The translations under genes and the position numbers were made by a program. Below are positions 1-42,458 of a stretch of DNA of 64,000 nt, piece by piece. Under the pieces are notes generated by a model that was not told where the DNA came from, did no database searches, and saw only the letters and a list, made by a program, of their open reading frames with translations. Each line of letters starts with the position of its first letter. Position 1 is the first letter of the stretch. Source of the stretch: Hufsiella ginkgonis (GTDB taxonomy: Bacteria > Bacteroidota > Bacteroidia > Sphingobacteriales > Sphingobacteriaceae); the NCBI RefSeq assembly GCF_009834915.1, contig NZ_WVHS01000004.1:372001-436000 (forward strand). Direction: 5' to 3'.

Positions 1-300
1 CTCGGCGCCAGCGTGGCGCTCATCACCGACGGACGTTTCAGCGGCGGCACCCACGGTTTCGTGGTAGGCCACATTACGCCCGAGGCATTCGACGGCGGCC
101 TCATAGGCCTGGTGCACGACGAAGACCGCATCGAGATCGACGCCACTACCCGCACTATTATCCTCGATGTGCCCGAAGACGTTATCGCCGCACGCCGCGC
201 CGCCTGGGTACAACCGGAACTGAAAGTAAAAAAAGGACTCTTATATAAATACGCGAAACAGGTTACCACAGCTGCTGAAGGCTGCGTAACCGACCAGTAA
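1..300 (+). CDS. ilvD: Dihydroxy-acid dehydratase, C-terminal part (5' end outside window)
   Basis: The frame is open from base 1, so the gene starts outside the window and only about 99 C-terminal residues are visible. They contain [12 protein letters not shown], the IlvD/Edd motif whose serine (GRFSGG) is the catalytic base, followed by GHITPEA. IlvD is a cytoplasmic Fe-S dehydratase that turns 2,3-dihydroxyisovalerate and 2,3-dihydroxy-3-methylvalerate into the 2-keto acids preceding valine and isoleucine. It is the first visible gene of the ilv-leu cluster, and its stop is followed directly by a palindromic repeat and ilvB. Confidence 0.93.
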
Positions 301-302
301 CT

Positions 303-405
303 GACGGTTGGACGTTAAACGCTCGACGTTAACGCTCCTGTCCCGTGCTTATTGAAAGCTTAAATTAACACGAAGCAAACGTCCGACGTTAACGTCAAAC
401 GTTGA
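303..405. repeat. Palindromic ACGTT-type intergenic repeat between ilvD and ilvB
   Basis: Left part carries GACGTTAAACG and CGACGTTAACG; right part carries CGACGTTAACGTCAAACG. ACGTTAACGT is itself a palindrome, so the two sides can pair. The middle contains CCTGTCCCGT, a 10-mer that recurs in the ilvN-ilvC gap. It starts within a few bases of the ilvD stop codon. Seen directly; the role is unknown. Confidence 0.7.
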
Positions 406-428
406 ACCCGGATAAACCAAACAAGAAT

Positions 429-2165
429 ATGGAGACGCTACAACAAGAATTACCAGCTGCCGAGAAAAAGGAAACCAGGAAAGTTTCGGGATCAGTGGCA
501 TTGCTGGATGCCTTGATCGCAGAGGGAGTGGACACGATCTTCGGATACCCGGGAGGTGCGATCATGCCTATCTATGACGCGCTGTATGATTATTCGGAAC
601 AGCTGACCCATATCCTGGTACGCCACGAGCAGGGAGGCATCCACGCAGGACAGGGTTACGCACGCTCGTCGGGCAAAGTGGGCGTCGTTTTCGCTACCAG
701 CGGACCGGGCGCCACCAACCTGGTAACAGGCCTGGCCGATGCACAGATCGATAGCACGCCCCTGGTATGTATCACCGGGCAGGTGTTCGCCCACCTGTTG
801 GGAACAGATGCGTTCCAGGAAACGGACGTGATTAACATCACTACCCCGGTAACCAAATGGAACTACCAGGTAACCGACGCGACCGAGATCCCGGAGGTAT
901 TGGCAAAGGCATTTTATATCGCCAAAAGCGGCAGGCCGGGCCCGGTGCTGATCGATATCACCAAGAATGCACAGCTACAGCAGTTCGACTATGAAGGTTA
1001 CATCCCTTGCAGCCATATCCGCAGCTATCGCCCTAAACCGATCGTACGTAAAGAATATATCGAACAGGCAGCGGCACTGATCAACAATGCGAAAAAGCCG
1101 TTCATCATCTGGGGGCAGGGTGTATTGCTCGGCCGTGCAGAAAGCGAATTTAAAGCCCTGGTAGAAAAAAGCGGGATCCCTGCAGCATGGACGATCATGG
1201 GCGCCGGCGCAATACCCACGGACCACCCTCAAAATGTTGGGATGCTGGGTATGCACGGCAATTACGGCCCTAACGTGATGACCAATGAATGCGACGTACT
1301 CATCGCCATTGGCATGCGTTTCGACGACCGTGTAACCGGGAGGCTCGATAAATATGCCAAACAGGCACAGGTGGTACACCTCGATATCGACCCTGCGGAG
1401 ATCGACAAAAACGTGAAAACAACCGTTCCTGTATGGGGCGATTGCAAAGAGACTTTGCCGCTTCTCACCCGGTTACTTGAGCCTAAGCAACATACCGGGT
1501 GGCTGGCCAGGTTCCGTGAGTTCGATGAGCAGGAACAGGAAATCGTGATCAACCAGGAACTGCACCCGCAATCCGGGGAACTGACCATGGGCGAAGTGAT
1601 CTACCAGCTGAACGAGTTAACCAAAGGGGAAGCTATCATTGTAACCGATGTGGGCCAGCACCAGATGGTGGCCTGCCGCTATGCGAAGTTTAACAACACA
1701 CGCAGCAACATCACCAGCGGGGGCCTTGGCACCATGGGCTTCGCGCTTCCTGCTGCCATCGGCGCAAAATTTGGCGCCCGGGATAAAACGGTAGTCGCCA
1801 TTATTGGCGACGGTGGCTTCCAGATGACGTTACAGGAACTCGGTACCATCATGCAGAGCGGCATTGATGTAAAGATCATGATCCTGAACAACCGGTTCCT
1901 CGGCATGGTCCGTCAATGGCAGCAGCTGTTTCATGAAAAACGTTATTCATTTGTAAACATCACCAGCCCAGATTTCGTACAGGTGGCGAAAGGCTATTAT
2001 ATCGACGGGAAGAGCATCTCCGACCGCGCAGATCTCGCAGGCGCCCTTCAGGAAATGCTTAGCCATAAAGGCTCTTTCCTGCTCGAAGTAATGGTGGCGA
2101 AAGAGAACAACGTGTTCCCGATGGTGCCCCAGGGATGCAGCGTGAGCGAGATCCGTCTTAAATAA
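429..2165 (+). CDS. ilvB: Acetolactate synthase large (catalytic) subunit
   Basis: Thiamine-diphosphate enzyme making 2-acetolactate from pyruvate, or acetohydroxybutyrate from pyruvate plus 2-ketobutyrate; the first common step of branched-chain synthesis. N-terminal part shows GYPGGAIMP and RHEQGG (catalytic Glu), then ATSGPGATNLVTG. The C-terminal ThDP/Mg site is GDGGFQM followed by LNNRFLGMVRQWQ. The frame is open back to a TTG at 402, but the ATG at 429 gives the usual N-terminus and leaves the repeat outside the gene; length is 578 residues, normal for the family. No Shine-Dalgarno is visible. Operonic with the adjacent ilvN regulatory subunit. Confidence 0.95.
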   Translation: METLQQELPAAEKKETRKVSGSVALLDALIAEGVDTIFGYPGGAIMPIYDALYDYSEQLTHILVRHEQGGIHAGQGYARSSGKVGVVFATSGPGATNLVTGLADAQIDSTPLVCITGQVFAHLLGTDAFQETDVINITTPVTKWNYQVTDATEIPEVLAKAFYIAKSGRPGPVLIDITKNAQLQQFDYEGYIPCSHIRSYRPKPIVRKEYIEQAAALINNAKKPFIIWGQGVLLGRAESEFKALVEKSGIPAAWTIMGAGAIPTDHPQNVGMLGMHGNYGPNVMTNECDVLIAIGMRFDDRVTGRLDKYAKQAQVVHLDIDPAEIDKNVKTTVPVWGDCKETLPLLTRLLEPKQHTGWLARFREFDEQEQEIVINQELHPQSGELTMGEVIYQLNELTKGEAIIVTDVGQHQMVACRYAKFNNTRSNITSGGLGTMGFALPAAIGAKFGARDKTVVAIIGDGGFQMTLQELGTIMQSGIDVKIMILNNRFLGMVRQWQQLFHEKRYSFVNITSPDFVQVAKGYYIDGKSISDRADLAGALQEMLSHKGSFLLEVMVAKENNVFPMVPQGCSVSEIRLK

Positions 2166-2183
2166 ATAGAGCAGGAACAAAAT

Positions 2184-2235
2184 AATGAGTCGTACCCGCG
2201 CTAACAGCCAACAGCTATTAGCTATCAGCTAAAAA
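2184..2235. repeat. AGCT-type palindromic repeat between ilvB and ilvN
   Basis: A run of AACAGCCAACAGCT, ATTAGCTATCAGCT ends three bases before a short A-run and the ilvN start. Overlapping AGCT and TAGCTA units are self-complementary. A GTACCCGC stretch precedes it, as a TCCC-like core precedes the arms of the other members. Same flavour as the repeat at the hemL stop and the one inside ispG. Confidence 0.6.
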
Positions 2236-2238
2236 AAC

Positions 2239-2847
2239 ATGACAGCACAAGATCAGCCTTTTAAGCAGGAATTTAATATAACCGTTTACACTGAAAACCA
2301 GATCGGCCTGTTAAACCGGATCGCGATCATTTTTACGCGCCGGAAGATCAATATCGACAGCCTGAACACCTCCCCCTCGGAGATCGAAAGCATCCACCGC
2401 TTCAATATCGTGATCACCGAAACGGAGGATGTGGTACGCAAGCTCTCCCGCCAGATCGAAAAACAGGTGGAAGTACTAAAAGTGTACTACAACACCAATG
2501 ATGAAGTGATCTGGCAGGAACTGGCGCTATACAAAGTGCCCACCGATGTGATCGCCGAAAAAGCGAGTGTCGAGCGCCTGCTTCGTGAAAACGGTGCACG
2601 CGCCGTAGTGATCCGCAAAGATTACACCGTATTTGAAACAACCGGTCACCGGGAAGAAACCGACGCCCTTATCAAGGTATTACAACCCTATGGACTGATC
2701 GAGTTTGTACGCAGCGCCAGGGTAGCCATCATTAAACACAGCGACGGCTTTAACCGCAAGATCCGTGAATTTGAACGCATCGACCCGGGACAGGAGGTGA
2801 TCGAAAATGAATTCCTGAACAGCAGGGAGAAGGTGTTTACTATGTAA
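2239..2847 (+). CDS. ilvN: Acetolactate synthase small (regulatory) subunit
   Basis: The N-terminal ACT domain (about residues 10-85) starts FNITVYTENQIGLLNRIAII and fits the IlvH/IlvN family, which binds valine for feedback control and activates the catalytic subunit. A second ferredoxin-like domain follows (about 90-175: AVVIRKDYTVFETTGH, LIKVLQPYGLIEFVRSARVA). At 202 residues it is longer than the roughly 160-residue enterobacterial form, with an extra C-terminal tail of about 25 residues. The ATG is preceded by AAAAAAC rather than a Shine-Dalgarno. It lies 73 bp after ilvB, separated by a repeat. Confidence 0.92.
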   Translation: MTAQDQPFKQEFNITVYTENQIGLLNRIAIIFTRRKINIDSLNTSPSEIESIHRFNIVITETEDVVRKLSRQIEKQVEVLKVYYNTNDEVIWQELALYKVPTDVIAEKASVERLLRENGARAVVIRKDYTVFETTGHREETDALIKVLQPYGLIEFVRSARVAIIKHSDGFNRKIREFERIDPGQEVIENEFLNSREKVFTM

Positions 2848-2853
2848 AATAAG

Positions 2854-2961
2854 GGTTAGGCGTTCACGCCGGACGTTGGGCGTGCCTGTCCCGTTAAACT
2901 GAAATATCAATAATTAATTACTATACAAAACGTACAACGTAAAACGTACAACGTAAAACCA
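2854..2961. repeat. ACGTT-type palindromic repeat between ilvN and ilvC
   Basis: Left part GGCGTTCACGCC, GGACGTTGGGCG; then CCTGTCCCGTTAA; then a right part with ACGTACAACGT and AAAACGTACAACGT repeated. It has the same order (arm, CCTGTCCCGT core, arm) as the ilvD-ilvB repeat. Arm pairing is imperfect. Confidence 0.65.
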
Positions 2962-2968
2962 AAACGCA

Positions 2969-4027
2969 ATGGCAAAATTAAATTTCGGGGGTACCGAAGA
3001 AACCGTAGTAACCCGTGAAGAGTTTCCGTTATCAAAAGCACAGGAGATCCTGAAAAATGAAACTGTAGCAGTGATCGGCTACGGCGTACAAGGCCCCGGA
3101 CAGGCGCTAAACCAGAAAGACAATGGCATTAACGTGATTGTTGGTCAGCGTAAAAATTCAAAAACATGGGATAAGGCTGTTCGCGATGGTTTTGTACCCG
3201 GCGAAACGCTGTTCGAAATTGAAGAAGCCCTCGAAAGAGGAACCGTGATCTGCTACCTGCTGAGTGATGCCGCCCAGATCGAGCTGTGGCCAACTGTTAA
3301 AAAACACTTAACTGCGGGCAAAGCCCTTTACTTCTCGCATGGCTTTGGTATCACGTTCAAAGAACAGACCGGCATCATCCCTCCTGCCGACGTAGACGTG
3401 TTCCTGGTCGCACCAAAAGGTTCGGGCACTTCGCTGCGCAGGATGTTCCTCGAAGGCCGAGGCCTCAACTCCAGCTTCGCCATTTTCCAGGACGCTACCG
3501 GCCGTGCTTTCGAGCGTGTAATTTCCCTCGGTATCGCGGTAGGCAGCGGTTACCTGTTCGAAACCGACTTCCGTAAAGAAGTATTCAGCGACCTTACCGG
3601 CGAGCGCGGCACCCTGATGGGCTGTATCCAGGGTATTTTCGCGGCACAATATGAAGTATTGCGCAGTAAAGGGCACAGCCCCTCCGAGTCGTTTAACGAA
3701 ACCGTTGAAGAGCTGACCCAATCCCTTATGCCGTTAGTGGCAGAAAACGGGATGGACTGGATGTACGCCAACTGCTCTACCACCGCACAACGCGGCGCGT
3801 TAGACTGGTGGAAAAAGTTCCGCGATGCCACCAAGCCGGTTTTCGAAGAGCTTTACGAAAGCGTTGCAACCGGCAAGGAGTCGCAGCGCTCGATCGATTC
3901 AAACAGCCAGCCGGATTACCGCGTAAAATTAGACGCCGAACTTGCCGAGCTTCGCGACAGCGAAATGTGGCAGTCGGGCAAGACCGTAAGAAGCTTAAGA
4001 CCTGAGAACCAGGTGGTAGAAGCATAA
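2969..4027 (+). CDS. ilvC: Ketol-acid reductoisomerase (NADP+)
   Basis: Isomerises and reduces acetolactate or acetohydroxybutyrate to the dihydroxy acids used by IlvD; needs Mg2+ and NADPH. The N-terminal Rossmann fold has VIGYGVQGPGQALNQKD (nucleotide loop) and VIVGQRKNS, with the Arg/Ser pattern of NADPH-using enzymes. The all-helical KARI domain includes DLTGERGTLMGCIQG with the metal-binding Asp/Glu, and ENGMDWMYANCSTTAQRGA. 352 residues, class I size. Flanked on both sides by palindromic repeats, the second beginning directly after the stop codon. Confidence 0.95.
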   Translation: MAKLNFGGTEETVVTREEFPLSKAQEILKNETVAVIGYGVQGPGQALNQKDNGINVIVGQRKNSKTWDKAVRDGFVPGETLFEIEEALERGTVICYLLSDAAQIELWPTVKKHLTAGKALYFSHGFGITFKEQTGIIPPADVDVFLVAPKGSGTSLRRMFLEGRGLNSSFAIFQDATGRAFERVISLGIAVGSGYLFETDFRKEVFSDLTGERGTLMGCIQGIFAAQYEVLRSKGHSPSESFNETVEELTQSLMPLVAENGMDWMYANCSTTAQRGALDWWKKFRDATKPVFEELYESVATGKESQRSIDSNSQPDYRVKLDAELAELRDSEMWQSGKTVRSLRPENQVVEA

Positions 4028-4122
4028 CAGTAACCAGTGATCAGTAATCAGTAATCAGTTTCTATCCCAATGCGAAAGACGGCGGCTGGGAACTGACTGC
4101 TGATTACTGATCACTGACAACC
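4028..4122. repeat. Long hairpin of ATCAGT units between ilvC and leuC
   Basis: Left arm 4035-4060 is built from CAGTGATCAGT and AATCAGT units. Right arm 4091-4116 is its reverse complement at 24 of 26 positions. The 30-base loop contains CTATCCCAATGCG and ends GGCTGGG, so CCCA and TGGG can extend the pairing. It starts at the base after the ilvC stop codon. It lacks a following T-run, so it does not look like a terminator. Confidence 0.85.
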
Positions 4123-4131
4123 GAAAGATTC

Positions 4132-5547
4132 ATGGGAAAAACACTATTCGACAAGATCTGGGACGCGCATGTGGTAAGCAGCAAAGATGGTTTCCCGGAT
4201 ATCTTGTACATCGACACGCACTTTATTCACGAGGTAACGAGCCCGCAGGCATTCGACGGGCTGCGCAAGCGCGGGCTCCCCGTTTTCAGGCCCAGACAAA
4301 CGGTAGCCACAGCCGATCATAACGTACCTACGGTTGACCAGCATCTTCCTATTAAGGAAGAGCTTTCGCGTTTCCAGGTAGATACGCTGACGAGAAACTG
4401 CAACGAGTTTGGAGTAGAGCTCTATGGGCTCGGGCATCCCTTCCAGGGAATCGTACACGTGATCGGCCCGGAGCTCGGTATTACTGTACCCGGCAACACT
4501 TACGTATGCGGCGATAGTCACACGTCGACCCACGGCGCTTTCGGCGCCATCGCATTCGGTATCGGCACTTCGCAAGTAGAGCAGGTAATGGCTACCCAAT
4601 GTTTGCTGCAGTCGCGTCCCAAAAGGATGAAGATCGAAGTGAACGGCAAGCTAACGACCGGCGTAGGCGCAAAAGACATCATCCTGTACATCATCTCGAA
4701 AATTTCAGCAGCCGGGGGAACGGGCTATTTCGTGGAATATGCGGGGGAAACCATCCGTTCACTGAGCATGGAAGGCCGCATGACCATCTGTAATATGAGC
4801 ATCGAGATGGGTGCCCGTGGTGGAATGATCGCCCCGGACGATACCACGTTCAACTACGTAAAAGACCGCGAATTTGCTCCCAAAGGCGAAGAATGGGATA
4901 AAGCCCTGGCTTATTGGAAGACACTTTATTCAGATATCGACGCGCAGTTCGACAAAGTATTGTACTTCGCGGCCGAAGATATCGAACCGATGATCACCTA
5001 CGGCACCAACCCCGGAATGGGGATCGGCATTACCGGGCACATCCCGGAAACGGGTGCGGTAGAGGTGCACGAGCAACCTTCTTATAAGAAAGCGTTAAAC
5101 TACATGGGCCTCGAAGACGGACAAACCCTGCTCGATAAACCCATCGATTACGTATTTATCGGCAGCTGCACCAATTCGCGCATCGAAGACCTTCGCCAGG
5201 TGGCGGAATTTGTAAAAGGCCGCACCAAGGCGGCACATGTTACGGCATGGATCGTCCCCGGCTCGAAACAGGTAGAACAGCAGGCGATCCGTGAGGGTCT
5301 CGACAAAGTGTTCGAGGCGTCCGGTTTTCACCTGAGAGAACCGGGATGCAGCGCTTGTCTCGGCATGAATGAAGACAAGATCCCGGCAGGAAAATACTGC
5401 GTATCAACCTCCAACAGGAACTTTGAAGGACGCCAGGGCCCTAACGCCCGCACATTCCTGGCCAGCCCGCTCACCGCAGCTGCAGCCGCAATTACCGGCA
5501 GGATCACCGACGTGCGCGAATTATTGGAAGAACCGGAACTGATTTAG
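4132..5547 (+). CDS. leuC: 3-isopropylmalate dehydratase large subunit
   Basis: Aconitase-family subunit that, with LeuD, converts 2-isopropylmalate to 3-isopropylmalate in leucine synthesis. It carries the 4Fe-4S ligands: [13 protein letters not shown] (first Cys) and [10 protein letters not shown] (CxxC pair). Also visible are [20 protein letters not shown] and RNFEGRQG, all typical. 471 residues is full length. ATG start; no Shine-Dalgarno. Five bases separate its stop from the leuD start, the tight spacing expected for two subunits of one enzyme, and this gap has no repeat. Confidence 0.95.
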
Positions 5548-5552
5548 GAATC

Positions 5553-6143
5553 ATGGCAACTAAAATATTTAAGAACATACAATCCCCGGCGGTTCCCCTG
5601 CCGGTAGAGAACATCGATACCGATCAGATCATTCCCGCGAGGTTTCTGAAGGCCACTACGCGCGATGGGTTCGGAAGTAACCTTTTCCGCGACTGGCGCT
5701 ATGAGAGCGACGGGCAACCAAAAGCGGACTTCGTGCTGAACCAGCCGCTGTATAGCGGTAAGATACTGGTTGCAGGGAAGAACTTCGGTTGCGGAAGCAG
5801 CCGCGAACATGCCGCCTGGGCGCTGGCCGATTACGGCTTCGACGTAGTAGTGAGCAGCTTCTTTGCCGATATTTTTAAAGGCAATGCCCTCAACAACGGC
5901 TTGCTGCCGGTGCAGGTGAGCGATGGCTTTCTCGAAAGCATCTTTGCCGCCATCGAAAAAGATGCCCATACCCTGGTTGAAGTCGACCTCGAGAAACAAA
6001 CGATCTTCCTCCACCATTCCGGCAAAGAAGAAACGTTCGAGATCAATCCCTATAAAAAAGCCTGTTTGATAAACGGGTATGATGACATCGATTATATCCT
6101 GAGTAATAAGGAACTGATTGAGGAATTTGAAAGTAATCAGTAA
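5553..6143 (+). CDS. leuD: 3-isopropylmalate dehydratase small subunit
   Basis: Swivel-domain partner of LeuC. It shows [16 protein letters not shown] near the N-terminus and [17 protein letters not shown] in the middle, the latter binding substrate. 196 residues, normal length. The last three residues Ser-Asn-Gln and the TAA stop (AGT AAT CAG TAA) are already part of the palindromic repeat that fills the gap to leuB, so the repeat has probably replaced the original end of the gene. Confidence 0.94.
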
Positions 6144-6224
6144 TCAGTGGTCAGTGGTCAGTTAGCCTCGGTCCCGCTATGGGCGGGGATAAAACTGATC
6201 ACTGATCACTGATAGCTGACAACC
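6132..6224. repeat. ATCAGT-type palindromic repeat spanning the leuD stop
   Basis: Left arm is AGTAATCAGT, AATCAGTGGTCAGTGGTCAGTT; right arm is AACTGATCACTGATCACTGATAGCTGACAACC. The centre, CGGTCCCGCTATGGGCGGGGAT, is itself palindromic and read on the other strand gives ATCCCC. The left arm codes for the last three residues and the stop of leuD. The right end contains GATAGCTGACA, linking this flavour to the AGCT flavour. Confidence 0.8.
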
Positions 6225-6233
6225 AAACGAAAC

Positions 6234-7313
6234 ATGATAACTAAAAATATACTTGTCATCCCCGGGGATGGCATCGGTGCGGAAGTGACTACCTGGGGCA
6301 AGGCGGTGCTTGAACAGATCGCTGCAGATTTTGGTCACGAATTCTCGTACGAAGAGGCGTTGATGGGTCACGTGGCCATCGAAGCAACAGGCACGCCCCT
6401 GCCGGATGAAACGCTTGAAAAAGCGAAACGCAGCGATGCGATCCTTTTCGGAGCGGTAGGTCATGCCAAATACGACAATGATCCTACATTAAAAGTACGC
6501 CCGGAGCAGGGCCTGCTAAAGATCAGGAAAGAGCTTGGGCTGTATGCGAACCTTCGCCCCATCCTGTTATTCGACGAACTGCTGGGCGCCTCGAGCCTTA
6601 AACCGGAGATCTTGAAAGGAACGGATATTCTTTTCTTCCGCGAACTAACCGGCGATGTATATTTTGGCGAGAAAAACCGCAGCGAAGATCGTAACACCGC
6701 CTCCGATCTCATGATCTACCATCGCTACGAGGTGGAGCGTATCGCGCGGAAAGCGTATGAGGCGGCACGCGTAAGACGTAAAAAGCTATGTTCGGTAGAT
6801 AAGGCGAATGTACTCGAAGCTTCACGCTTATGGCGCGAAGTGGTACAGGAGATCGCGAAAGAATACCCGGATGTAGAAACCGAGCACATGTTTATCGATA
6901 ACGCGGCCATGCAGCTGGTAAAAAACCCCGGGAAATTCGACGTGGTGCTAACCGCGAACCTGTTTGGCGACATCCTGACCGACGAGGCTTCGCAGATAGC
7001 CGGGTCCATGGGGATGCTGGCCTCTGCGTCTGTGGGCGACGGCACCGGGTTTTTCGAACCGATCCACGGCTCGGCACACGATATTGCAGGACAGAACAAA
7101 GCCAATCCGCTGGCTTCGATCCTGTCAGCAGCATTGATGCTCGAGATCGCCTTTGGCCTCAAGGAAGAAGCGAAACAAGTTACGGATGCGGTGGATAAGG
7201 CGCTTAAACTGGGATTCCGTACTTCAGACATTGCAGGTAACGGCACAGATCCATCCGATATCCTGGGAACTAACGAGATGGGCAATAAAATAGTAGAACT
7301 CGTCAAGCGGTAA
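6234..7313 (+). CDS. leuB: 3-isopropylmalate dehydrogenase
   Basis: NAD+-dependent oxidative decarboxylase giving 4-methyl-2-oxopentanoate, the direct leucine precursor. Motifs: VIPGDGIGAEV at the N-terminus, FGAVGHAKYDNDP, RELTGDVYFGEK, the Mg-binding NLFGDILTDEASQIAGSMG, and FEPIHGSAHDIAGQNKANP (adenine-binding region with the Asp typical of NAD+ enzymes). 359 residues. ATG at 6234 follows the repeat. leuA starts 20 bp downstream. Confidence 0.95.
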   Translation: MITKNILVIPGDGIGAEVTTWGKAVLEQIAADFGHEFSYEEALMGHVAIEATGTPLPDETLEKAKRSDAILFGAVGHAKYDNDPTLKVRPEQGLLKIRKELGLYANLRPILLFDELLGASSLKPEILKGTDILFFRELTGDVYFGEKNRSEDRNTASDLMIYHRYEVERIARKAYEAARVRRKKLCSVDKANVLEASRLWREVVQEIAKEYPDVETEHMFIDNAAMQLVKNPGKFDVVLTANLFGDILTDEASQIAGSMGMLASASVGDGTGFFEPIHGSAHDIAGQNKANPLASILSAALMLEIAFGLKEEAKQVTDAVDKALKLGFRTSDIAGNGTDPSDILGTNEMGNKIVELVKR

Positions 7314-7333
7314 CATTATAAAGAAACACCCCT

Positions 7334-8497
7334 ATGCTACACGATCCAAACCGTATTTATGTATTCGACACCACCCTTCGCGACGGCGAACAGGTACCGG
7401 GTTGCCAACTGACTACCCCTGAAAAGGTAGAGATCGCGAAGTCGCTGGAACTGTTGGGCGTGGATATTATCGAGGCTGGTTTCCCGATCTCCAGCCCGGG
7501 TGATTTCCAAAGCGTGGTAGAAATATCCAAAGCCGTAAAAGACCCGGTGGTATGTGCGTTAACGCGTGCCAACAAAGGTGATATCGATGCGGCGGTGGAA
7601 TCGCTTAAATTTGCTAAACGTCCGCGGATCCATACCGGGATCGGCTCTTCCGACATGCATATCAGGCATAAATTTAACAGCACCCGCGAAGAGATCCTTC
7701 GCCGTGGCGTAGAAGCCGTTAAATATGCCAAGCAGTTTGTAGAGGATATCGAGTTTTATGCCGAAGATGCCGGCCGTGCCGATATCGAATTTCTTGCCCA
7801 GATGATCCGCGCCGTAATTGCCGCCGGCGCTACCGTGGTGAACATTCCCGATACCAATGGCTATTGCCTGCCCGAACAGTATGGCGCAAGGATCAAGTAC
7901 CTCAAAGACAACGTGGATAACATCGGCCAGGCGATCATTTCTGTGCATTGCCACAACGACCTCGGCCTGGCTACCGCTAACAGCATCGCGGGCTTACAGG
8001 CGGGCGCACGGCAGGTGGAATGCACCATCAACGGCATTGGCGAGCGCGCCGGGAATACGTCGATGGAGGAAGTGGTGATGATCCTTAAAACGCACCATTC
8101 CGTTAACCTGCACACCCATATCAAAGCGGCTAACTTTTTCGAAATGAGCCGTATGATCAGTTCGCAAATGCGCATGCCGGTACAGCCGAACAAAGCGATT
8201 GTGGGTGCGAACGCGTTTGCACACAGCTCGGGCATTCACCAGGACGGCTTCCTGAAAAACAGGGAAAACTACGAGATCATAAAACCCGAAGATGTTGGCT
8301 TTCCAAGCGCATCGATCGTGCTAACGGCACGCAGTGGACGGCATGCATTAAAATTTCACCTGGAACGACTTGGCTATCAACTGGATAAAGAGGCCCTGGC
8401 CGAAGCTTACAAAAATTTCCTGGCGCTGGCAGACCACAAGATGGACATCGACGATGACGACCTGCGCAGCCTCGTAACCGAAAACTTAGTCAAATAA
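7334..8497 (+). CDS. leuA: 2-isopropylmalate synthase, short form without regulatory domain
   Basis: Condenses acetyl-CoA with 2-oxoisovalerate, the committing step of leucine synthesis. The TIM barrel shows [13 protein letters not shown] with the metal-binding Asp, [10 protein letters not shown], and [13 protein letters not shown] with the His-x-His metal ligands, then NGIGERAGN. The helical accessory region [16 protein letters not shown] follows. The protein ends at 387 residues, where standard LeuA would begin its C-terminal leucine-binding domain (about 120 residues more). Homocitrate or citramalate synthase are related alternatives, but the leuCDB context favours LeuA. Confidence 0.9.
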
Positions 8498-8498
8498 C

Positions 8499-9749: not shown

Positions 9750-9758
9750 GCCTTTCCC

Positions 9759-9785
9759 TTGTTCTCCTCAAATAATTTATCTTCG
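9759..9785 (+). promoter_or_regulatory. Possible promoter for the TMEM175-like gene
   Basis: TTG at 9759-9761, a 16-base gap, then TATCTTCG at 9778-9785, one base off the Bacteroidota -7 consensus TAnnTTTG. It lies 14 bases before the ATG at 9800 and would separate this gene from the ilv-leu transcript. Confidence 0.3.
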
Positions 9786-9799
9786 TGACCAGGTAAGTT

Positions 9800-10474: not shown

Positions 10475-10481
10475 CGGCAAG

Positions 10482-11477: not shown

Positions 11478-11493
11478 GCTGCGAAGATACGGA

Positions 11494-11531: not shown

Positions 11532-11548
11532 AATGTATAGAACTGATT

Positions 11549-13726: not shown

Positions 13727-13796
13727 TTAAATACAAGATGTAGCAATCCGGATATTGGTTGCATCCTGTGATAAAATTTCATCAAAATTTCATTTA

Positions 13797-13949
13797 GTGG
13801 TCAGTGATCAGTTGTCAGTGATCAGTTCCTATCCCGGTCGTTATGCGTGATGCAGCAACTGATCACTGACACTGATTACTGACAACTGATCACGGATTAC
13901 TGACAACTGATCACTGACAACTGATCACTGATCACTGATCACTGATTAC
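13797..13949. repeat. Largest ATCAGT-type palindromic repeat, at the end of a barrel gene
   Basis: Left arm (to 13827) is GGTCAGTGATCAGTTGTCAGTGATCAGTT; core 13828-13856 begins CCTATCCCGGTCG; the right arm from 13857 is a long run of AACTGATCACTGA, GATTACTGACAACTGATCA and ATCACTG units, roughly three times the left arm. Units are 7-10 bases and irregular, with no unique spacers, so it is not a CRISPR array. On the - strand its end codes for the last residues and stop of the gene at 13939. Confidence 0.85.
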
Positions 13950-15063
13950 TTCTAACCATCCTGAAGTCCTGCCTGTACACCAAAAATAGCGAATGATAAA
14001 ACTCCGCTTTCCCGCCGGGGCCAAGGTCAAATACCGGTTCTACACGAAAGTCGAGCCTGAAATTCTGCGTCAGGTCCTTCTGGAAAGCGTAACGTAAAAA
14101 CAGCAGCTCCCGGTGTTTTTCACTATAACCGGGGTGATTGATCTGTTGCGAAAGTGACTGGTAGATGGGCATGCCGTTTATCGCGATAAAGCCCTGCCCG
14201 TTCCAGTAGCTGGCAAGCACTGTCCCCAGCCGCGTATCGGCCCCGAGGTTGAGGTAAGCGCCGGTACCGCGGGAAAAGGGCCTGATCTTAACCGGAGATA
14301 ATTCGTTGTAGGTAACGAAATAATTTTCCGTCCGCCAGCTGCCCACGAAACCATTGCTCTTTAACGTCAGCTTTACACCAGCGGCCGAGTTGACGATCGT
14401 TTGCAGCGGCCGGGCCATGGTATCGATCTGTCCTCCCTGGTGGAACGCGGTAAGCTGCAAGGGCACGGAAAATGTGATCCTCTTTCCCGCCGCAAGGCGG
14501 ACGTCGGACGATAATCCCGCCACGATCTGCTCCTGTACCGGCGACGGTTTGTAGATCATGCGTTTCCAGTTAATAAACGCATCCAAGAATAATGCAGGTT
14601 TGCTGATCACCAGTTGGGTGCCGTATTCAACCGGGTCGTTAACGGTTTTCTCGAAATCATACAGTGGCTCTATCAACCGGTGATTCACATTGGCTTCCAG
14701 CGCTCCCGCGATCAACGCGGTATTTCCCTTTTGGTATTTGACACTAAATAAAGGATAAGTTTTAGAGATCCCCTCCGACCCGAAGTCTTTCTGCAGCAAA
14801 GCGCCTGCTGTAAGCACCAGTTCCGGATTCGCGTAATAGGCCAATTGGGGCGAAAGCTGGGTACCGTACAGTGTATACCCGTCCTGGAACTTATTATAAA
14901 ACTCGTAGTTGCGCAGGAAGTTAAAGTTATTGACGCTGAGGTAAAGAGATCCGGTACGATAATAATCGGGACGGATGCGGTACTCCAGGCTGTCATTTCT
15001 CAGCTGTCCGGAAACGCGGAGGGAGCATACAGTAAAACAAAAAAAAAATAGGAGCTTCTTCAT
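13939..15063 (-). CDS. Putative outer-membrane beta-barrel protein, C-terminus made by a repeat
   Basis: No named family was recognised. The start chosen is the ATG giving MKKLLFFFCFTVCSLRVSG, a signal peptide; the frame is open 14 codons further up but those add only an odd hydrophobic run. The mature part is rich in short amphipathic strands (SLYLSVNNFNFLRNYEF, AYYANPELVLTAGALL, ELLFLRYAFQ, LDFRVEPVFDL), which suggests a barrel of about 350 residues. It ends Arg-Ser-Asn-Gln-stop, where AGT AAT CAG TGA is the edge of the repeat. It lies downstream of hemJ, probably behind a weak terminator. Confidence 0.6.
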   Translation of the reverse strand: MKKLLFFFCFTVCSLRVSGQLRNDSLEYRIRPDYYRTGSLYLSVNNFNFLRNYEFYNKFQDGYTLYGTQLSPQLAYYANPELVLTAGALLQKDFGSEGISKTYPLFSVKYQKGNTALIAGALEANVNHRLIEPLYDFEKTVNDPVEYGTQLVISKPALFLDAFINWKRMIYKPSPVQEQIVAGLSSDVRLAAGKRITFSVPLQLTAFHQGGQIDTMARPLQTIVNSAAGVKLTLKSNGFVGSWRTENYFVTYNELSPVKIRPFSRGTGAYLNLGADTRLGTVLASYWNGQGFIAINGMPIYQSLSQQINHPGYSEKHRELLFLRYAFQKDLTQNFRLDFRVEPVFDLGPGGKAEFYHSLFLVYRQDFRMVRSNQ

Positions 15064-26762: not shown

Positions 26763-28802
26763 TTATTGGGGGTCTACCCAATTCCCGTCGGCGGTAATGA
26801 TCCCGATCAGTTCATCCAGCGCCTGTCCTGTGTTCACATTTTTCTTGACCACCTCCTTGCCGCGGTAAAGCGTGATCTTACCCGGCCCGGCGCCTACATA
26901 CCCATAATCGGCATCGGCCATTTCGCCGGGCCCGTTTACGATACAACCCATGATACCGATCTTCAGTCCTTTCAGGTGAGACGTCCTGCCGCGGATCATC
27001 TGCGTAGTTTCCTGCAGGTCGAACAAGGTACGGCCACAGCTGGGGCAAGAAATGTACTCCGTTTTCGAGATCCGCGAACGGGTAGCCTGCAAGATCCCAA
27101 ATGAAACGGAGGTGATCACGTTCGCCGGGATATGCGGAGCATCGATCCATATTCCGTCACCAAAGCCATCTACCAATAAACCGCCAAGATCTGTGGCAGC
27201 ATAGAGTTGTAAGCGGGTGGTTTCTTCAGGCTGATAGCTGACAGCTGATAACTGATAGCTTCTCCTGATGATCACCGGCACTTCGCATCCCATCCCGAGG
27301 AGTTGGAAAAAAAAACCGCGCTGATCGGCCATACCGTGAATGGCTTCTGTTTCCAATACGAACACCAGCGTGTTATCTAACCTGATATTGGCAAAAGCTT
27401 CCGTTTCCAGGTCGGCCGGCGTTAATCTCACCAGGTTCAATGCAGGGCAGCGGCTGGTTGTCGTATTATATTCTTCGAGGCCGTACACCGGGTGGCAGTT
27501 TGCTTTATCGGCCAGGGTCTCCCACGTGGGATAATGATACAGTTGCTTCAGGTTTCCCGGGAAATTAAACGAAGGAAGATTATCACCCAGGTAAACGAAA
27601 TCGACCGACTGATCGGCCATGTGATACTTGTCGAGCAACGGGGAGTAAAGATACCCGGCATCGTTCAGCACGGCGGGATCCTTGAGGTTGGCGCGCGACA
27701 GGTCGAGCACCACACGCGGCACCATATGTCCGCCGATAAAGGCGTTTGCCTCGTAAGTATAGCGTTTTTCGTATCGATAAGGACTGTATCCAGCCGGAAA
27801 CCCCGGGTTTGAAGCAGGTTGCCGGTCAGGAGTAACGGAACTGCTTTCAGCTTTATACTTCAAGCTTTCAGCCTCTTTCCTTAAGCTTTCAGCCCTTGCC
27901 GTATACCTGTTCACCAGTTCGATGGCCACGGGAGCCTCCGCCTCCGGCTCTTCCGTTAACGACACACGAACGGTATCTCCCAGGCCATCTTCCAGCAAGG
28001 TGCCGATGCCGACCGCCGACTTGATCCGCCCGTCTTCACCGTCCCCTGCCTCCGTTACGCCAAGGTGAAGCGGGTAGTTCATTCCTTCCGCGATCATGGT
28101 TTCCACCAACAGCCGGTAAGCCTGTACCATTACCTGCGGGTTACTCGATTTCATGGAAACCACCAGGTTATAATATCCCAGGTTCTCGCACATGCGCATA
28201 AACTCCATGGCCGATTCCACCATTCCGCGTGGGGTATCACCGTAACGGCTCATGATACGGTCTGACAAAGAACCATGGTTGGTACCGATCCGCATCGCTG
28301 TTCCGTACTCTTTACAGATATTTACCAGGGGGGTAAACTTCTGGTAAATGCGGTCGAGCTCCGCCTGGTACTCGGTATCTGTATATTCCAGCTGATCGAA
28401 CTTCTTCTTATCTGCGTAATTGCCCGGGTTAACACGCACTTTTTCCACGATGCGGGCGGCTACTTCAGCGGCGTTCGGGGTAAAGTGGATATCGGCAACA
28501 AGAGGCACTTTATAACCTCTTTTATGCAGTTCGCTTTTAATCACCGCCAGGTTATACGCTTCTTTGATGCTTGGCGCCGTGATCCGCACGTATTCACAAC
28601 CGGCGTTTACCATCCGGATGCTTTGCTCTACGGTACCGATGGTATCCATGGTATCGGTGGTGGTCATGCTTTGGATACGGATCGGGTTGAGCCCTCCCAT
28701 GGGAATATCGCCGATAAAAACTTCGCGGGTAAGCCACCGCGAGTAAGAAGTCAGCGAATTACAATAAACTCCCCCTGCAGGTTTTAAAATTTCAGCACTC
28801 AT
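26763..28802 (-). CDS. ispG: 4-hydroxy-3-methylbut-2-enyl diphosphate synthase with repeat-derived insertions
   Basis: Penultimate step of the MEP isoprenoid pathway, using a 4Fe-4S cluster. The N-terminal TIM barrel shows PIRIQSMTTTDT, LVADIHFTPN and VRVNPGNYA; the C-terminal domain has the cluster ligands Cys586, Cys589 (SCPSCGRT) and Cys620 with MGCIVNGPGEMADADYG. 679 residues against about 370 in E. coli; a large middle domain is normal for Bacteroidota and plants. Two stretches look acquired: residues 303-321 (AESLRKEAESLKYKAESSS), coded by a 21-base repeat, and 515-524 (SYQLSAVSYQ), coded by an AGCT-type palindromic repeat. Both keep frame, so the enzyme is probably active. Confidence 0.93.
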   Translation of the reverse strand: MSAEILKPAGGVYCNSLTSYSRWLTREVFIGDIPMGGLNPIRIQSMTTTDTMDTIGTVEQSIRMVNAGCEYVRITAPSIKEAYNLAVIKSELHKRGYKVPLVADIHFTPNAAEVAARIVEKVRVNPGNYADKKKFDQLEYTDTEYQAELDRIYQKFTPLVNICKEYGTAMRIGTNHGSLSDRIMSRYGDTPRGMVESAMEFMRMCENLGYYNLVVSMKSSNPQVMVQAYRLLVETMIAEGMNYPLHLGVTEAGDGEDGRIKSAVGIGTLLEDGLGDTVRVSLTEEPEAEAPVAIELVNRYTARAESLRKEAESLKYKAESSSVTPDRQPASNPGFPAGYSPYRYEKRYTYEANAFIGGHMVPRVVLDLSRANLKDPAVLNDAGYLYSPLLDKYHMADQSVDFVYLGDNLPSFNFPGNLKQLYHYPTWETLADKANCHPVYGLEEYNTTTSRCPALNLVRLTPADLETEAFANIRLDNTLVFVLETEAIHGMADQRGFFFQLLGMGCEVPVIIRRSYQLSAVSYQPEETTRLQLYAATDLGGLLVDGFGDGIWIDAPHIPANVITSVSFGILQATRSRISKTEYISCPSCGRTLFDLQETTQMIRGRTSHLKGLKIGIMGCIVNGPGEMADADYGYVGAGPGKITLYRGKEVVKKNVNTGQALDELIGIITADGNWVDPQ
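27229..27260. repeat. AGCT-type palindromic repeat inside ispG
   Basis: GGCTGATAGCTGACAGCTGA and on to TAACTGATAGCT; near-identical units to the intergenic repeats before ilvN and after leuD (GATAGCTGACA). Read on the coding strand it gives SYQLSAVSYQ. Confidence 0.75.
27843..27893. repeat. 21-base-period repeat inside ispG
   Basis: GCTTTCAGC occurs at 27843, 27864 and 27885, exactly 21 bases apart, with AAGCTTTCAGC in the last two copies. It codes for a heptad series AESLRKE / AESLKYK / AESSS, which would form a short charged helix. Confidence 0.75.
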
Positions 28803-39290: not shown

Positions 39291-39400
39291 TTGGACGTCA
39301 GACCGCATGGCTCCGGCCGCCGATCATAAATGAACAGAGCTCAAAAAAGTTAAATAGAATCTTTAAAAACGTACAACGTCAAACGTATAACGTATAACCA
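39291..39400. repeat. ACGTT-type palindromic repeat between the first TldD and TldE genes
   Basis: TTGGACGTCAGACC starts at the base after the TldD stop; the far side is ACGTACAACGTCAAACGTATAACGTATAACC. The middle 60 bases have no TCCC core and no gene. Confidence 0.6.
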
Positions 39401-39407
39401 CAAGAAA

Positions 39408-40754: not shown

Positions 40755-40760
40755 AAAGGC

Positions 40761-40791
40761 TGGACGTATAATGTAATACGTTATACGTCCA
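40761..40791. repeat. Perfect 11-bp hairpin between the TldE and second TldD genes
   Basis: TGGACGTATAA (40761-40771) and TTATACGTCCA (40781-40791) with a 9-base loop; GTAATACGTTATACG adds inner symmetry. Same units as the preceding ACGTT-type repeat. No T-run follows. Confidence 0.7.
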
Positions 40792-40817
40792 ACGCATAAC
40801 CATTTAACGTTACTACT

Positions 40818-42458
40818 TTGAAAAGAAGAAACTTTATGTACCTTTCCGGCATGGGCCTCGGCGCCACCATGCTGCAGGGGATCCCAGTGCTGGGGCGCGA
40901 CATTTCCATCGGGGAAATGCTTACACCCGTAGATGTTGCGCTAAAAAAAACACTCTCGGACGTTGCGCTCAATGCTGCTAAATCAAAGGGAGCCACGTAT
41001 GCCGACGTACGTATCGGCCGGTACCTTAACCAGTCGGTAAACGCACGCAATGGCAATGTGCAGGGCGTATCGAACTCCGAATCATATGGCGTGGGCATCC
41101 GTGTAATTGCCAACGGCTGCTGGGGATTCGCCTCCACCAACAAAATGACAAAAGACGAGATCGCCAAAGCGGCAGGCTTCGCGGTAGCGGTGGCCAAAGC
41201 GAACGCTAAGATCTCCGGCGAACCGGTACGCCTGGCACCGCAAAAGGGATATGGTGAGGTGAGTTGGAAAACGCCGTTCGAAAAGAACGCATTCGAAGTG
41301 CCGATCAAAGATAAAGTAGACCTGTTGCTGGCCGTAAACGCCGAAGGCATGAAGGGCGGCGCAACACAGATCATGTCTTCGCTCGGGTTTGTGAACGAAC
41401 AGAAATATTTCGCATCTACCGACGGCTCGTATATCGACCAGGACGTTCACCGCATCTGGCCTACCTTTACCGCCACCAAGATCGACCGGGCAAGCGGCGC
41501 ATTTGAAAGCCGCAGCTCGCTGAGCGCCCCCATGGGCCTTGGTTATGAGTACCTCATTCCCGACGAAAAGGAGAAAATTAAAGGAGGCCCGGCTACCTTG
41601 TACAAAAAGCGGTACGATATGCTCGAAGACATGCGTGAAGCGGCCGCACACATCGGCGAAAAGATCAAAGCCAAATCCATCGAGCCGGGCAAGTATGACC
41701 TGGTACTCGATCCTACACATTTATTCCTTACCATCCACGAATCTGTAGGTCACCCTACCGAGCTCGACCGCGTACTGGGCTACGAAGCCAACTATGCCGG
41801 TACCAGCTTCCTGACATTGGATAAATGGGAGTCGAAGAAATTCAACTTCGGCAATAAGCTGGTAAACATCGTGGGCGACAAACTGGAACCGGGTTCGCTC
41901 GGCGCCGTAGGTTATGACGATGAGGGCGTGAAGTGCGGCAAATGGGACATTATCAGGGATGGTATCCTGGTAAACTACCAGGCGATCCGCGACCAGGCGC
42001 ACATCCTCGGCCTTAACGCTTCGCAGGGTTGCTGCTATGCCGACGACTGGAGCAGCGTACAGTTCCAGCGCATGCCAAACGTTTCGCTGCAGCCGGGCAA
42101 AACCCCGATGAGCGCTGCGGAAATGATCAAAGGTGTGGAAAAAGGCATCTACATGCTGGGCCGTAACTCCTACTCCATCGACCAGCAACGTTATAACTTC
42201 CAGTTCAGCAGCCAGTTGGCTTACGAGATTAAGGAAGGAAAAATTGTCGGGATGTTTAAAGATGCAGCCTACCAGGCAAATACCCAGGAATTCTGGAACT
42301 CCTGTGCCGGCTTATGCGACGCCAACGATTACCGCTTAGGCGGAACATTTAACGACGGCAAAGGACAACCCAGCCAAAGCAGTGCGGTGTCTCACGGATG
42401 CCCTACCGCCCGGTTCAACGGGGTAAATGTTATCAACACCGGGCGAAGGATCGGGTAA
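40818..42458 (+). CDS. Tat-exported TldD-family metalloprotease, copy 2
   Basis: Tandem paralogue of the TldD at 37650: same 546-residue length, same TTG start, same Tat signal (MKRRNFMYLSGMGLGATMLQ), same HESVGH zinc motif, and near-identical long stretches such as the region after HESVGHPTELDR. Differences concentrate in residues 230-280. Both copies keep all recognisable catalytic residues, so they may form two different TldD/TldE pairs with the single TldE, or cut different substrates. It ends at a strong bidirectional terminator, closing the operon. Confidence 0.85.
   Translation: MKRRNFMYLSGMGLGATMLQGIPVLGRDISIGEMLTPVDVALKKTLSDVALNAAKSKGATYADVRIGRYLNQSVNARNGNVQGVSNSESYGVGIRVIANGCWGFASTNKMTKDEIAKAAGFAVAVAKANAKISGEPVRLAPQKGYGEVSWKTPFEKNAFEVPIKDKVDLLLAVNAEGMKGGATQIMSSLGFVNEQKYFASTDGSYIDQDVHRIWPTFTATKIDRASGAFESRSSLSAPMGLGYEYLIPDEKEKIKGGPATLYKKRYDMLEDMREAAAHIGEKIKAKSIEPGKYDLVLDPTHLFLTIHESVGHPTELDRVLGYEANYAGTSFLTLDKWESKKFNFGNKLVNIVGDKLEPGSLGAVGYDDEGVKCGKWDIIRDGILVNYQAIRDQAHILGLNASQGCCYADDWSSVQFQRMPNVSLQPGKTPMSAAEMIKGVEKGIYMLGRNSYSIDQQRYNFQFSSQLAYEIKEGKIVGMFKDAAYQANTQEFWNSCAGLCDANDYRLGGTFNDGKGQPSQSSAVSHGCPTARFNGVNVINTGRRIG

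What the first reader, a model, noticed from the sequence alone, without database searches (positions are those of the whole stretch)
4028..4122. A family of palindromic repeats fills most gaps of the ilv-leu operon
Repeats occur in the ilvD-ilvB, ilvB-ilvN, ilvN-ilvC, ilvC-leuC and leuD-leuB gaps; the gaps under 21 bp (leuC-leuD, leuB-leuA, leuA-ilvA) have none. The ilvC-leuC member pairs over 26 bases with 2 mismatches. None has a terminator T-run. Possible roles: REP-like mobile elements, mRNA stabilisers setting subunit ratios, or structural sites.
Basis: partly seen in the sequence, partly recalled or inferred. Interest (0 to 1): 0.7.

Follow-up and report, generated by a model that had tools for sequence, protein, structure and literature searches.

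The report
Seven-letter DNA repeats invading gaps
Gaps in this bacterium's leucine-isoleucine gene cluster hold arrays of a seven-letter DNA motif, about half of them mirrored, that also fill many other gaps, differ in wording from species to species, and even sit inside the coding sequence of an essential enzyme, so they look like a spreading repeat rather than a switch for this operon.

Summary
The repeats are real, but the unit is not a fixed palindrome. It is a degenerate heptad: a conserved pentamer (TCAGY, ACGTY or AATAG) plus two variable bases, repeated every 7 nt and, in about half of the gaps, set as inverted arms. Five operon gaps carry arrays (ilvD-ilvB only weakly); only ilvC-leuC and leuD-leuB fold as strong RNA hairpins (z -8.7, -6.3). 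They are not operon-specific: TCAGY triplets give 409 overlapping matches genome-wide against 2 for the reversed control, in gaps of every orientation. Relatives mostly hold other heptads in these gaps, so they are not old conserved leaders. RAYT-REP is unlikely: no Y1 transposase was found. Most telling, heptad arrays also lie in frame inside two IspG loops, including this window's ispG (27227-27264): 13 and 8 of 50 loops at lag 7, 0-1 at other lags except 14, none at lag 7 elsewhere in the gene. Best reading: a spreading repeat, like Rickettsia palindromic elements in behaviour and cyanobacterial heptanucleotide repeats in architecture, changing by 7-nt units. Mechanism inferred.

The parts
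306..407 (.). ilvD-ilvB gap (301-401): degenerate ACGTY-type heptads in both arms (314-334 and 387-407)
   Evidence: inverted arms 21 nt, 86%; lag-7 12 of 21, p 0.042; fold z -1.40: weak member
2198..2234 (.). ilvB-ilvN gap: AGCT/TCAGC-type heptad array, single arm
   Evidence: lag-7 17 of 21, 0 of 500 shuffles; z -1.32
2923..2970 (.). ilvN-ilvC gap: (AACGTNN)n array ending just before the ilvC start; a poor ACGTT-like counterpart near 2862-2880 (by eye)
   Evidence: z -0.66
4024..4127 (.). ilvC-leuC gap: (NNTCAGT)n - core - (ACTGANN)n palindrome; ungapped arms 4035-4067 and 4084-4116
   Evidence: strong RNA hairpin z -8.65
6127..6226 (.). leuD-leuB: (NNTCAGT)n - G+C-rich core hairpin - (ACTGANN)n palindrome; begins inside leuD and supplies its last codons and stop (TAA 6141-6143)
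   Evidence: z -6.26
13792..13958 (.). largest palindrome of the window, 4 left and 12 right TCAGT/ACTGA pentamers (counted by eye), reaching into the 3' end of the gene at 13939-15105 (-)
   Evidence: arms 32 nt, 97% complementary
27227..27264 (-). heptad array IN FRAME inside ispG/gcpE (26763-28802 -), encoding ...RRSYQLSAVSYQPEE... in loop S2; this one shows no inverted arm
   Evidence: ORF; Pfam GcpE 1e-121; loop comparison; inverted-arm test
39365..39403 (.). (AACGTNN)n array in an intergenic gap (39291-39407), similar to the ilvN-ilvC array (38 nt, 89%)
40755..40835 (.). short ACGTY-type inverted array in an intergenic gap (found at a laxer threshold)

Best explanation
These are members of a genome-wide class of degenerate heptanucleotide arrays. 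Each array repeats a 7-nt unit made of a conserved pentamer and a variable dinucleotide; in about half of the gaps that hold one, a core and a reverse-complement arm follow. SHOWN: the period is 7; arrays occur in intergenic gaps of any orientation, inside a transposon-like repeat, over the 3' end of leuD and in frame in IspG loops; the pentamer differs between species and between gaps of one genome; copies of one repeat differ by whole heptads. INFERRED: arrays grow, shrink and are rewritten by slippage or template switching primed at the pentamers, which keeps the pentamers alike and lets the dinucleotides drift; they spread or persist because intergenic DNA and protein loops tolerate them. 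Because 7 leaves remainder 1 on division by 3, a uniform array reads as the same repeating heptapeptide in all three frames, which may ease survival inside genes. In the ilv-leu operon they are presumably co-transcribed, and two form strong predicted intercistronic hairpins; any effect on mRNA is a by-product until shown.
For: Period: in 377 gaps of a blind sample lag-7 arrays lie in 32, against 1-4 for lags 5, 6, 8-11 and 13, and 0.8 on average after shuffling. Abundance (overlapping matches, both strands): TCAGY triplets 409 v 2 control; ACGTY 43 v 0. Inverted 21-mers beyond all 20 shuffles in 11 of 25 own gaps with arrays against 30 of 249 without. Spread: 40 of 121 family genomes have TCAGY triplets, patchily within genera. 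Same gaps mostly hold other units in relatives. Coding loops: 13 and 8 of 50 IspG loops at lag 7, 0-1 at other lags except 14 (8 and 6), none at lag 7 in the rest of the gene; MnmE loop in G139 with a related array in G128. Unit-wise change: 13 full-length copies of a 188-bp repeat have 3 (6), 4 (6) or 5 (1) right-arm heptads, and in the six 4-heptad copies variable positions differ more (5 of 36) than pentamers (2 of 90) or other sites (30 of 873).
Against: No machinery was found and no heptad array was caught as a filled/empty site pair. The ilvC-leuC gap has fold z below -3 in 13 of 15 relatives, with heptads in only 7, which could mean a selected hairpin (noticed post hoc among 7 gaps). 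In relatives, gaps with heptads do not fold clearly better than gaps without (median z -2.51 v -2.14). Relatives' arms match in order beyond the unit consensus (Stouffer 8.4, but those 29 pairs were selected for complementarity), which slippage alone does not explain; here the effect is weak (2.5; best-offset 65 v 63.6 +- 2.9). Only 5 of 13 S1 and 0 of 8 S2 heptad loops of IspG have inverted arms beyond 20 shuffles, and the loops do not fold better than controls. Octads also exist (lag 8: 36 v lag 7: 91 arrays in relatives). Arrays hold more stop-codon frames than shuffles (4.23 v 3.60 +- 0.09), unexplained. Not every in-gene array matches its genome's common unit: GAGCG arrays in IspG of genus g3 are rare elsewhere in those genomes (3, 1 and 1 matches).
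Confidence: 0.62

Rival explanations
1. Intercistronic mRNA stabilisers or processing sites selected in operons to set the ratio of neighbouring gene products.
For: Two of five ilv-leu arrays fold strongly; co-directional gaps of 60-220 nt with heptads in this genome have median z -4.2 (29 gaps) against -0.63 without (190 gaps); ilvC-leuC gaps of relatives fold strongly in 13 of 15 with differing sequences.
Against: Arrays occur in gaps of every orientation (co 19 of 226, convergent 3 of 52, divergent 10 of 99) and inside genes. Three of five operon members do not fold better than shuffles. ilv-leu gaps of relatives are not significantly enriched.
Confidence: 0.15
2. Binding arrays for a protein that reads the pentamer every 7 nt on DNA or RNA (regulator, nucleoid protein or translation factor).
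For: The pentamer is conserved and the dinucleotide free; unit spacing is exact; MacGregor (PMC4679880, abstract) proposed S1, Csp or Csr proteins for TAACTGA repeats upstream of start codons.
Against: The pentamer changes between gaps of one operon and between species, so one protein could hardly read all; arrays lie in any orientation and inside ispG loops.
Confidence: 0.11
3. REP/BIME elements spread by a RAYT (Y1 tyrosine) transposase.
For: Short, dispersed, mostly intergenic, about half with inverted arms.
Against: No Y1_Tnp (PF01797) match in this 99.99% complete genome, while the same search rings in 5 of 14 control genomes; no fixed element sequence: 24 of 37 cores of 18-70 nt match only themselves in the 1.26-Mb sample.
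Confidence: 0.03
4. Transposon remains: heptad palindromes are worn MITEs, like the 188-bp repeat found here.
For: A 188-bp repeat with terminal inverted repeats and 8-bp target duplications (exact in 5 of 13 full-length copies, 7 of 8 bases in 2 more) carries TCAGC heptad arms.
Against: BLAST of the window's gaps against the sample gives matches to other heptad arrays only, read by eye, and most tested cores are single-copy; the element's terminal repeats lie outside its heptad arms.
Confidence: 0.09

Closest known systems
TAACTGA heptamer direct repeats (Beggiatoaceae, cyanobacteria, five Bacteroidetes; MacGregor 2015, PMC4679880)
   Same: 7-nt tandem units, mostly intergenic, changes mostly in 7-nt increments between two Cyanothece strains, some inside ORFs as LSVISYQ peptides (abstract, passages, sections 9, 10 and 15 read); TCAGTTA, its reverse complement, is one variant of our NNTCAGY.
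   Different: Reported as direct repeats of one heptamer, with one indirect repeat in the main genome. Here the unit is degenerate at two positions, about half of the arrays have inverted arms, many pentamers are used, and loops of a conserved enzyme are occupied in many species.
Degenerate heptanucleotide repeats of cyanobacteria (STRR; P6b stem of the Nostoc tRNA-Leu intron)
   Same: Degenerate heptanucleotides that base-pair into a hairpin and vary in copy number (passage in PMC3488679). Details of STRR degeneracy are recalled.
   Different: Different phylum and sequence; that case is one intron stem, here hundreds of genomic matches and several units per genome.
Rickettsia palindromic elements (RPE)
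   Same: Repeats in intergenic DNA and in frame inside genes of unrelated function (passages in PMC10969869).
   Different: RPE families are ~150-bp palindromes with a conserved peptide; here the shared feature is the 7-nt period, the sequence is a species dialect, and most in-gene arrays tested have no significant inverted arm.
GTAG/CGTC REP elements (PMC3733652)
   Same: High-copy short palindromes, some inside genes (abstract start and passages).
   Different: Those are tag-ended fixed hairpins, the GTAG kind tied to RAYTs; no Y1 transposase was found in this genome.
Geobacter metallireducens tandem heptanucleotide elements (consensus MTYCTGA; GGACCGG; PMC2700814)
   Same: Four or five tandem heptanucleotides; the MTYCTGA alignment is described as looping back on the other strand (supplement legends).
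   Different: Presented as predicted regulator sites or RNA elements with a fixed consensus, in another phylum.

Membership tests
REP (GTAG, RAYT-associated) | Y1 tyrosine transposase (RAYT) in the genome | tested here: not met
   PF01797: 0 matches in own genome, 5 of 14 controls ring
REP (GTAG, RAYT-associated) | fixed short palindrome tagged by GTAG (or CGTC) | not tested
   no tag scan was run
Degenerate heptanucleotide repeats (STRR-like) | tandem 7-nt units with some variable positions | tested here: met
   intergenic arrays: 35 at lag 7, 21 at lag 14, 0-6 at other lags from 4 to 16; exactly two phases under 80% conserved in 28 of 49 own and 48 of 100 relatives' arrays; the two most variable phases adjacent in 28 of 49 and 49 of 100, a third expected
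Degenerate heptanucleotide repeats (STRR-like) | occurrence in cyanobacteria | tested here: not met
TAACTGA direct repeats | exact TAACTGA/TCAGTTA unit as direct repeats | tested here: not met
   two variable positions: GA, TG, AG, TT, GG, AA beside TA
Rickettsia palindromic elements | same repeat in intergenic DNA and in frame within genes | tested here: met
   intergenic; window ispG and IspG loops
Rickettsia palindromic elements | palindromic also where it lies inside genes | tested here: inconclusive
   inverted 21-mer beyond 20 shuffles in 5 of 13 S1 loops with heptads (2 of 37 without) and 0 of 8 S2 loops (3 of 42 without), the window's own included; no better folding than controls
Rickettsia palindromic elements | conserved element sequence/peptide of about 150 bp | tested here: not met
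   different heptads at the same IspG loop in different species
MITE | terminal inverted repeats and target-site duplication | tested here: inconclusive
   met for a separate 188-bp repeat; the ilv-leu arrays were not tested for duplications and no empty site was available
Intrinsic terminator | G+C-rich stem followed by a T-run | tested here: not met
   none of the 8 terminator-like sites in 1-10000 lies in the five gaps
Known structured RNA (Rfam) | match at or above gathering score | tested here: not met
   4 matches in 1-16000, all far below gathering, microRNA models on the 13.8-kb palindrome

The most novel reading that the evidence does not exclude
Sphingobacteriaceae carry an unrecognised writing system: one dedicated activity (polymerase, transposase or template-switching pathway) makes 7-nt-periodic arrays and palindromes in a species-specific dialect and places or rewrites them in intergenic DNA and in enzyme loops, so that variable loops of IspG and MnmE in these bacteria are in good part repeat-born.
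Probability: 0.19. Interest if true: 0.86.

Novelty: new variant of a known kind. Interest (0 to 1): 0.62.

Why it matters
Heptanucleotide repeats have been noted piecemeal in cyanobacteria, Beggiatoaceae, Geobacter and a few Bacteroidetes, and have been read largely as possible regulatory sites. Here one bacterial family shows a more general form: degenerate heptads, often with inverted arms, species dialects, and in-frame occupation of loops in a conserved isoprenoid enzyme. That shifts the default reading from regulation towards a spreading mutational or selfish repeat, gives a source of new protein loops, and makes the origin of the period of 7 testable by sequencing mutation-accumulation lines. 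It also warns against reading such hairpins in an operon as tuned control elements.

Tried and rejected
Operon-specific function: tested by enrichment and folding in relatives, not supported. RAYT-REP: no Y1 transposase. Terminators: none in the gaps. Known RNA: none above gathering. Orientation preference: a first, partly hit-picked sample suggested depletion in divergent gaps (3 of 33 arrays), but the blind 800-kb sample did not (10 of 99 divergent gaps carry one), so the claim was dropped. Compensatory pairing of the variable dinucleotides: weak in this genome. Orthologous-array comparison of G128 and G139: only 2 of 30 G139 loci had a long alignment to the 13 G128 stretches, at 76% and 73% identity, too far for a unit-by-unit history, but it led to the in-gene arrays. 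Dialect match between gene loops and gaps: seen in this genome, G050, G026 and G139, not for the GAGCG unit; left as a lead. Folding of IspG loop arrays: not better than controls (median z -0.01 and 0.43 against -0.34). First-draft statements mended on recount: that arrays are 'usually' inverted (about half), that no relative shares a unit at the same gap (L036 does), and that L329 has both arms (it has two unlike arrays); confidence lowered by 0.02 and the novel case by 0.01 for that.

In the IspG count of 50, L283 (this window) and L247 were picked because they hold arrays, L313-L316 because their matches were split, and L317 was dropped as shorter than 600 aa; without those six, 10 of 44 carry a lag-7 array in S1 or S2 (from the list). 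The search behind it covered 61 genomes; I looked at 50 of their ispG loci (49 used) plus L247. The rest of the gene has segments at other lags (18 at lag 9, 5 at lag 15, 1-2 at lags 8, 11 and 12).

Paper searches: ten in all; in this open-licence library the peptide LSVISYQ (or two shifted forms) is found only in PMC4679880. Subscription papers could not be searched. Mazel 1990, Vioque 1997, Costa 2002 and Ogata 2000 are recalled, not seen.

Full report
WHAT IS THERE. The operon ilvD-ilvB-ilvN-ilvC-leuC-leuD-leuB-leuA-ilvA lies at the window's left end (ORFs; Pfam agrees for the four tested, ilvB, ilvC, leuC and leuB; the other names are recalled from products and order). A scan of self-matches at fixed lags shows that the repeats in its gaps have period 7. 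In TCAGT-type arrays the unit is NNTCAGT on one side and ACTGANN on the other; related units are NNTCAGC and NNACGTT, and elsewhere in the genome RRAATAG. Best lag-7 scores against 500 shuffles of each gap are extreme for four gaps and marginal for ilvD-ilvB (p 0.042). The ilvC-leuC and leuD-leuB members are true palindromes with strong predicted RNA hairpins (z -8.65, -6.26); the other three do not fold better than shuffles. The leuD-leuB array begins inside leuD and supplies its last codons and stop.

GENOME-WIDE. The genome has 5.2 Mb in 25 contigs. TCAGYNNTCAGYNNTCAGY gives 409 matches against 2 for the reversed pattern, ACGTYNNACGTYNNACGTY 43 against 0; these are overlapping matches on both strands, not numbers of arrays. 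In 40 stretches (800 kb) chosen as contiguous runs outside the stretches known to hold hits, lag-7 arrays are intergenic 35 times and coding 6 times; other lags from 4 to 16 give 0-6 intergenic, except lag 14 with 21. Gaps with an array: co-directional 19 of 226, convergent 3 of 52, divergent 10 of 99, so no clear preference for operons. Of 377 gaps, 32 carry one, against 0.8 on average after shuffling. An inverted 21-mer beyond all of 20 shuffles is found in 11 of 25 gaps of 60-400 nt with an array and in 30 of 249 without. In own arrays of at least 35 nt, exactly two of the seven phases are under 80% conserved in 28 of 49, and the two most variable phases are neighbours in 28 of 49, where a third would be expected; in relatives 48 and 49 of 100.

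POLARITY. With at least three units in each arm, 19 TCAGY pairs are TCAGY-first and none reversed; the 19 share 16 right arms. At a laxer setting it is 40 to 11 for TCAGY and 7 to 4 for ACGTY. In 29 selected palindromes of relatives the 5' arm has more G than C in 26 (fewer in 2) and the 3' arm more C than G in 28; purines prevail in the 5' arm in 20. I cannot explain the polarity.

RELATIVES. Among 80 ilvC loci from named genomes, 207 operon gaps exceed 40 nt; at a lax threshold 69 hold a lag-7 array, against 14, 16, 33, 15, 4, 8 and 18 for lags 5, 6, 8, 9, 10, 11 and 13, and 50 for lag 14. The units differ: AAAGGNN, GATACTT, ATAGTCN, ACGTNNT, AGCTNNT and others. With a palindrome score above 4, 29 pairs were found and 158 segments stayed unpaired; by the later test 47 of 88 gaps with arrays have an inverted 21-mer beyond shuffles, against 74 of 237 without (L018-L057, the first 40 of the 80 loci). 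Some Mucilaginibacter species share an ilvC-leuC palindrome of the GATACTT kind (L022, L028, L031, L044), so arrays can last through speciation. Read by eye, relatives do not share this window's units at these gaps, except that L036 has an ACGT-type array in ilvD-ilvB as here (part of the output was cut). TCAGY triplets occur in 40 of 121 family genomes and are patchy within genera, e.g. 49 in G062 and 0 in G051 of g16; in genus g15, 6 of 41. The reversed control also has matches in some genomes (up to 50 in G091), as it is itself a heptad pattern. With a composition filter, intergenic arrays in relatives number 91 at lag 7, 36 at lag 8, and 0-5 at lags 5, 6, 9-11 and 13, so octads exist too.

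IS THE OPERON SPECIAL? In the 80 named loci, heptads lie in 41 of 140 ilv-leu gaps of 60-220 nt and in 53 of 241 other co-directional gaps (p 0.14), and folding does not differ (p 0.60). In this genome co-directional gaps with heptads fold better (median z -4.20, 29 gaps) than those without (-0.63, 190); in relatives hardly (-2.51, 111 gaps, against -2.14, 347). One gap stands out post hoc: ilvC-leuC has z below -3 in 13 of 15 relatives, with heptads in only 7 and other palindromes in several more. That is the best remaining hint of a selected hairpin.

INSIDE GENES. The window's own ispG (26763-28802, minus; Pfam GcpE) contains a TCAGY array at 27227-27264 that reads in frame as YQLSAVSYQ. 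Aligning 50 IspG proteins of the family shows two loops, S1 and S2, of variable length. Lag-7 arrays lie in 13 S1 and 8 S2 loops and lag-14 arrays in 8 and 6; lags 4-6, 8-13 and 15 give 0 or 1; the other 1.8 kb of the gene has none at lag 7. Six of the 50 were picked with knowledge of an array or a split match; among the other 44, 10 carry one. Inverted arms beyond 20 shuffles are found in S1 of L285, L286, L289, L315 and L247 (5 of 13; 2 of 37 loops without heptads), and in none of the 8 S2 loops (3 of 42 without), the window's own included. In genus g3 the S2 region has the same length (177 nt) in three species, but one has TCAGC heptads and two have GAGCG-type heptads, as if the unit had been rewritten at constant length; this is a single case. 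MnmE (Pfam MnmE_helical and TrmE_N) of G139 has LSVISYQLSDNRQQTTDNRQQ between its NKKDL and SAK motifs (motif roles recalled), and G128 has a related, decayed insert there. A uniform 7-nt array gives the same cyclic heptapeptide in all three frames, which may help it survive in genes; MacGregor described the LSVISYQ reading and in-ORF cases for TAACTGA, mostly in short hypothetical proteins or near protein ends, with one RNA polymerase beta'-like exception (PMC4679880 sections 9, 15).

HOW THEY CHANGE. A separate dispersed repeat of 188 bp, with ends GGATCAAGCT.../...AAGCCTGATCC, has 35 matches in this genome, 22 of them over at least 94 of the 171 query bases. Of 26 loci, 13 gave both ends; 8-bp target duplications are exact in 5 and 7 of 8 bases in 2 more (the right end of L216 was misplaced). 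It carries TCAGC/GCTGA heptad arms. Among the 13 copies the right arm has 3, 4 or 5 heptads in 6, 6 and 1 copies. In the six 4-heptad copies the variable dinucleotides of the right arm's first three heptads differ at 5 of 36 sites, their pentamers at 2 of 90, other sites at 30 of 873 (NN against all else p 0.007; NN against pentamers p 0.02); in the left arm dinucleotides differ at 0 of 36 and pentamers at 2 of 90. This fits unit-wise slippage with pentamers as the pairing register, on small numbers, and the stable left arm does not support a general rule. MacGregor likewise notes mostly 7-nt-increment indels between two Cyanothece strains (section 10).

ALTERNATIVES. RAYT-REP is excluded as far as a missing Y1 transposase can exclude it. 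Terminators and known RNAs are not supported. mRNA stabilisation is possible for the two strong hairpins but does not explain arrays in divergent gaps or in coding loops. A single binding protein does not fit many pentamers in one genome. A slippage-grown or spreading repeat explains most of the data; it does not yet explain the polarity, the stop-codon excess (4.23 against 3.60 +- 0.09 frames of six in 69 own arrays, 3.99 against 3.53 +- 0.07 in 154 of relatives; all six frames in 14 and 19) or the arm mirroring seen in relatives (a biased selection).

NOVELTY. Heptanucleotide repeats and in-gene palindromes are both known. The combination (degenerate heptads, inverted arms, species dialects, conserved enzyme loops as targets) was not found in the ten paper searches made. 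I file it as a new variant of a known kind.

Noticed in passing
L210-L231; e.g. G000:C1:318990-319160: A 188-bp MITE-like repeat with terminal inverted repeats, 8-bp target duplications and heptad arms; 22 matches over at least 94 of 171 query bases in this genome. Its autonomous partner was not sought.
   Followed up: partly
L245 1139-2764 (-), L271 2651-4135 (-): MnmE with a heptad-encoded insert in the GTPase part in G139; the relative G128 has a decayed insert at the same place.
   Followed up: partly
L020, L025, L034, L038 intergenic arrays: Octad (8-nt) arrays such as GATGTGCA/TGCACATC in Mucilaginibacter and Bacteroidetes MAGs, the same style with a unit of 8.
   Followed up: no
L018-L019 ilvC-leuC gap: Hexad (6-nt) inverted arrays of the CTGCNA kind in two related MAGs at the same operon gap.
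   Followed up: no
L191, L192, L193, L194, L022 gaps: Pairs of an ATCGGTGTAATCA-like 13-mer stand shortly before start codons in several of these operon gaps; function unknown, seen by eye.
   Followed up: no
L020, L022, L028, L191 ilv-leu gaps: Long GTCATTGCGAGG...CCTCGCAATGAC palindromes share the operon gaps in these genomes; by eye like CGTC-type REPs, no tag test made.
   Followed up: no
L022, L028, L032, L044, L204 leuC-leuD; L193, L194, L201 leuC-leuD; L192, L194, L201 leuB-leuA: Relatives carry extra small ORFs inside the leu operon gaps, apparently different genes in different genomes; seen by eye, no family search made.
   Followed up: no
L112 7581-8010; L110 11501-11768: Intergenic blocks where a heptad-bearing unit of about 120-130 bp (L112) or about 50 bp (L110) is itself tandemly repeated.
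   Followed up: no
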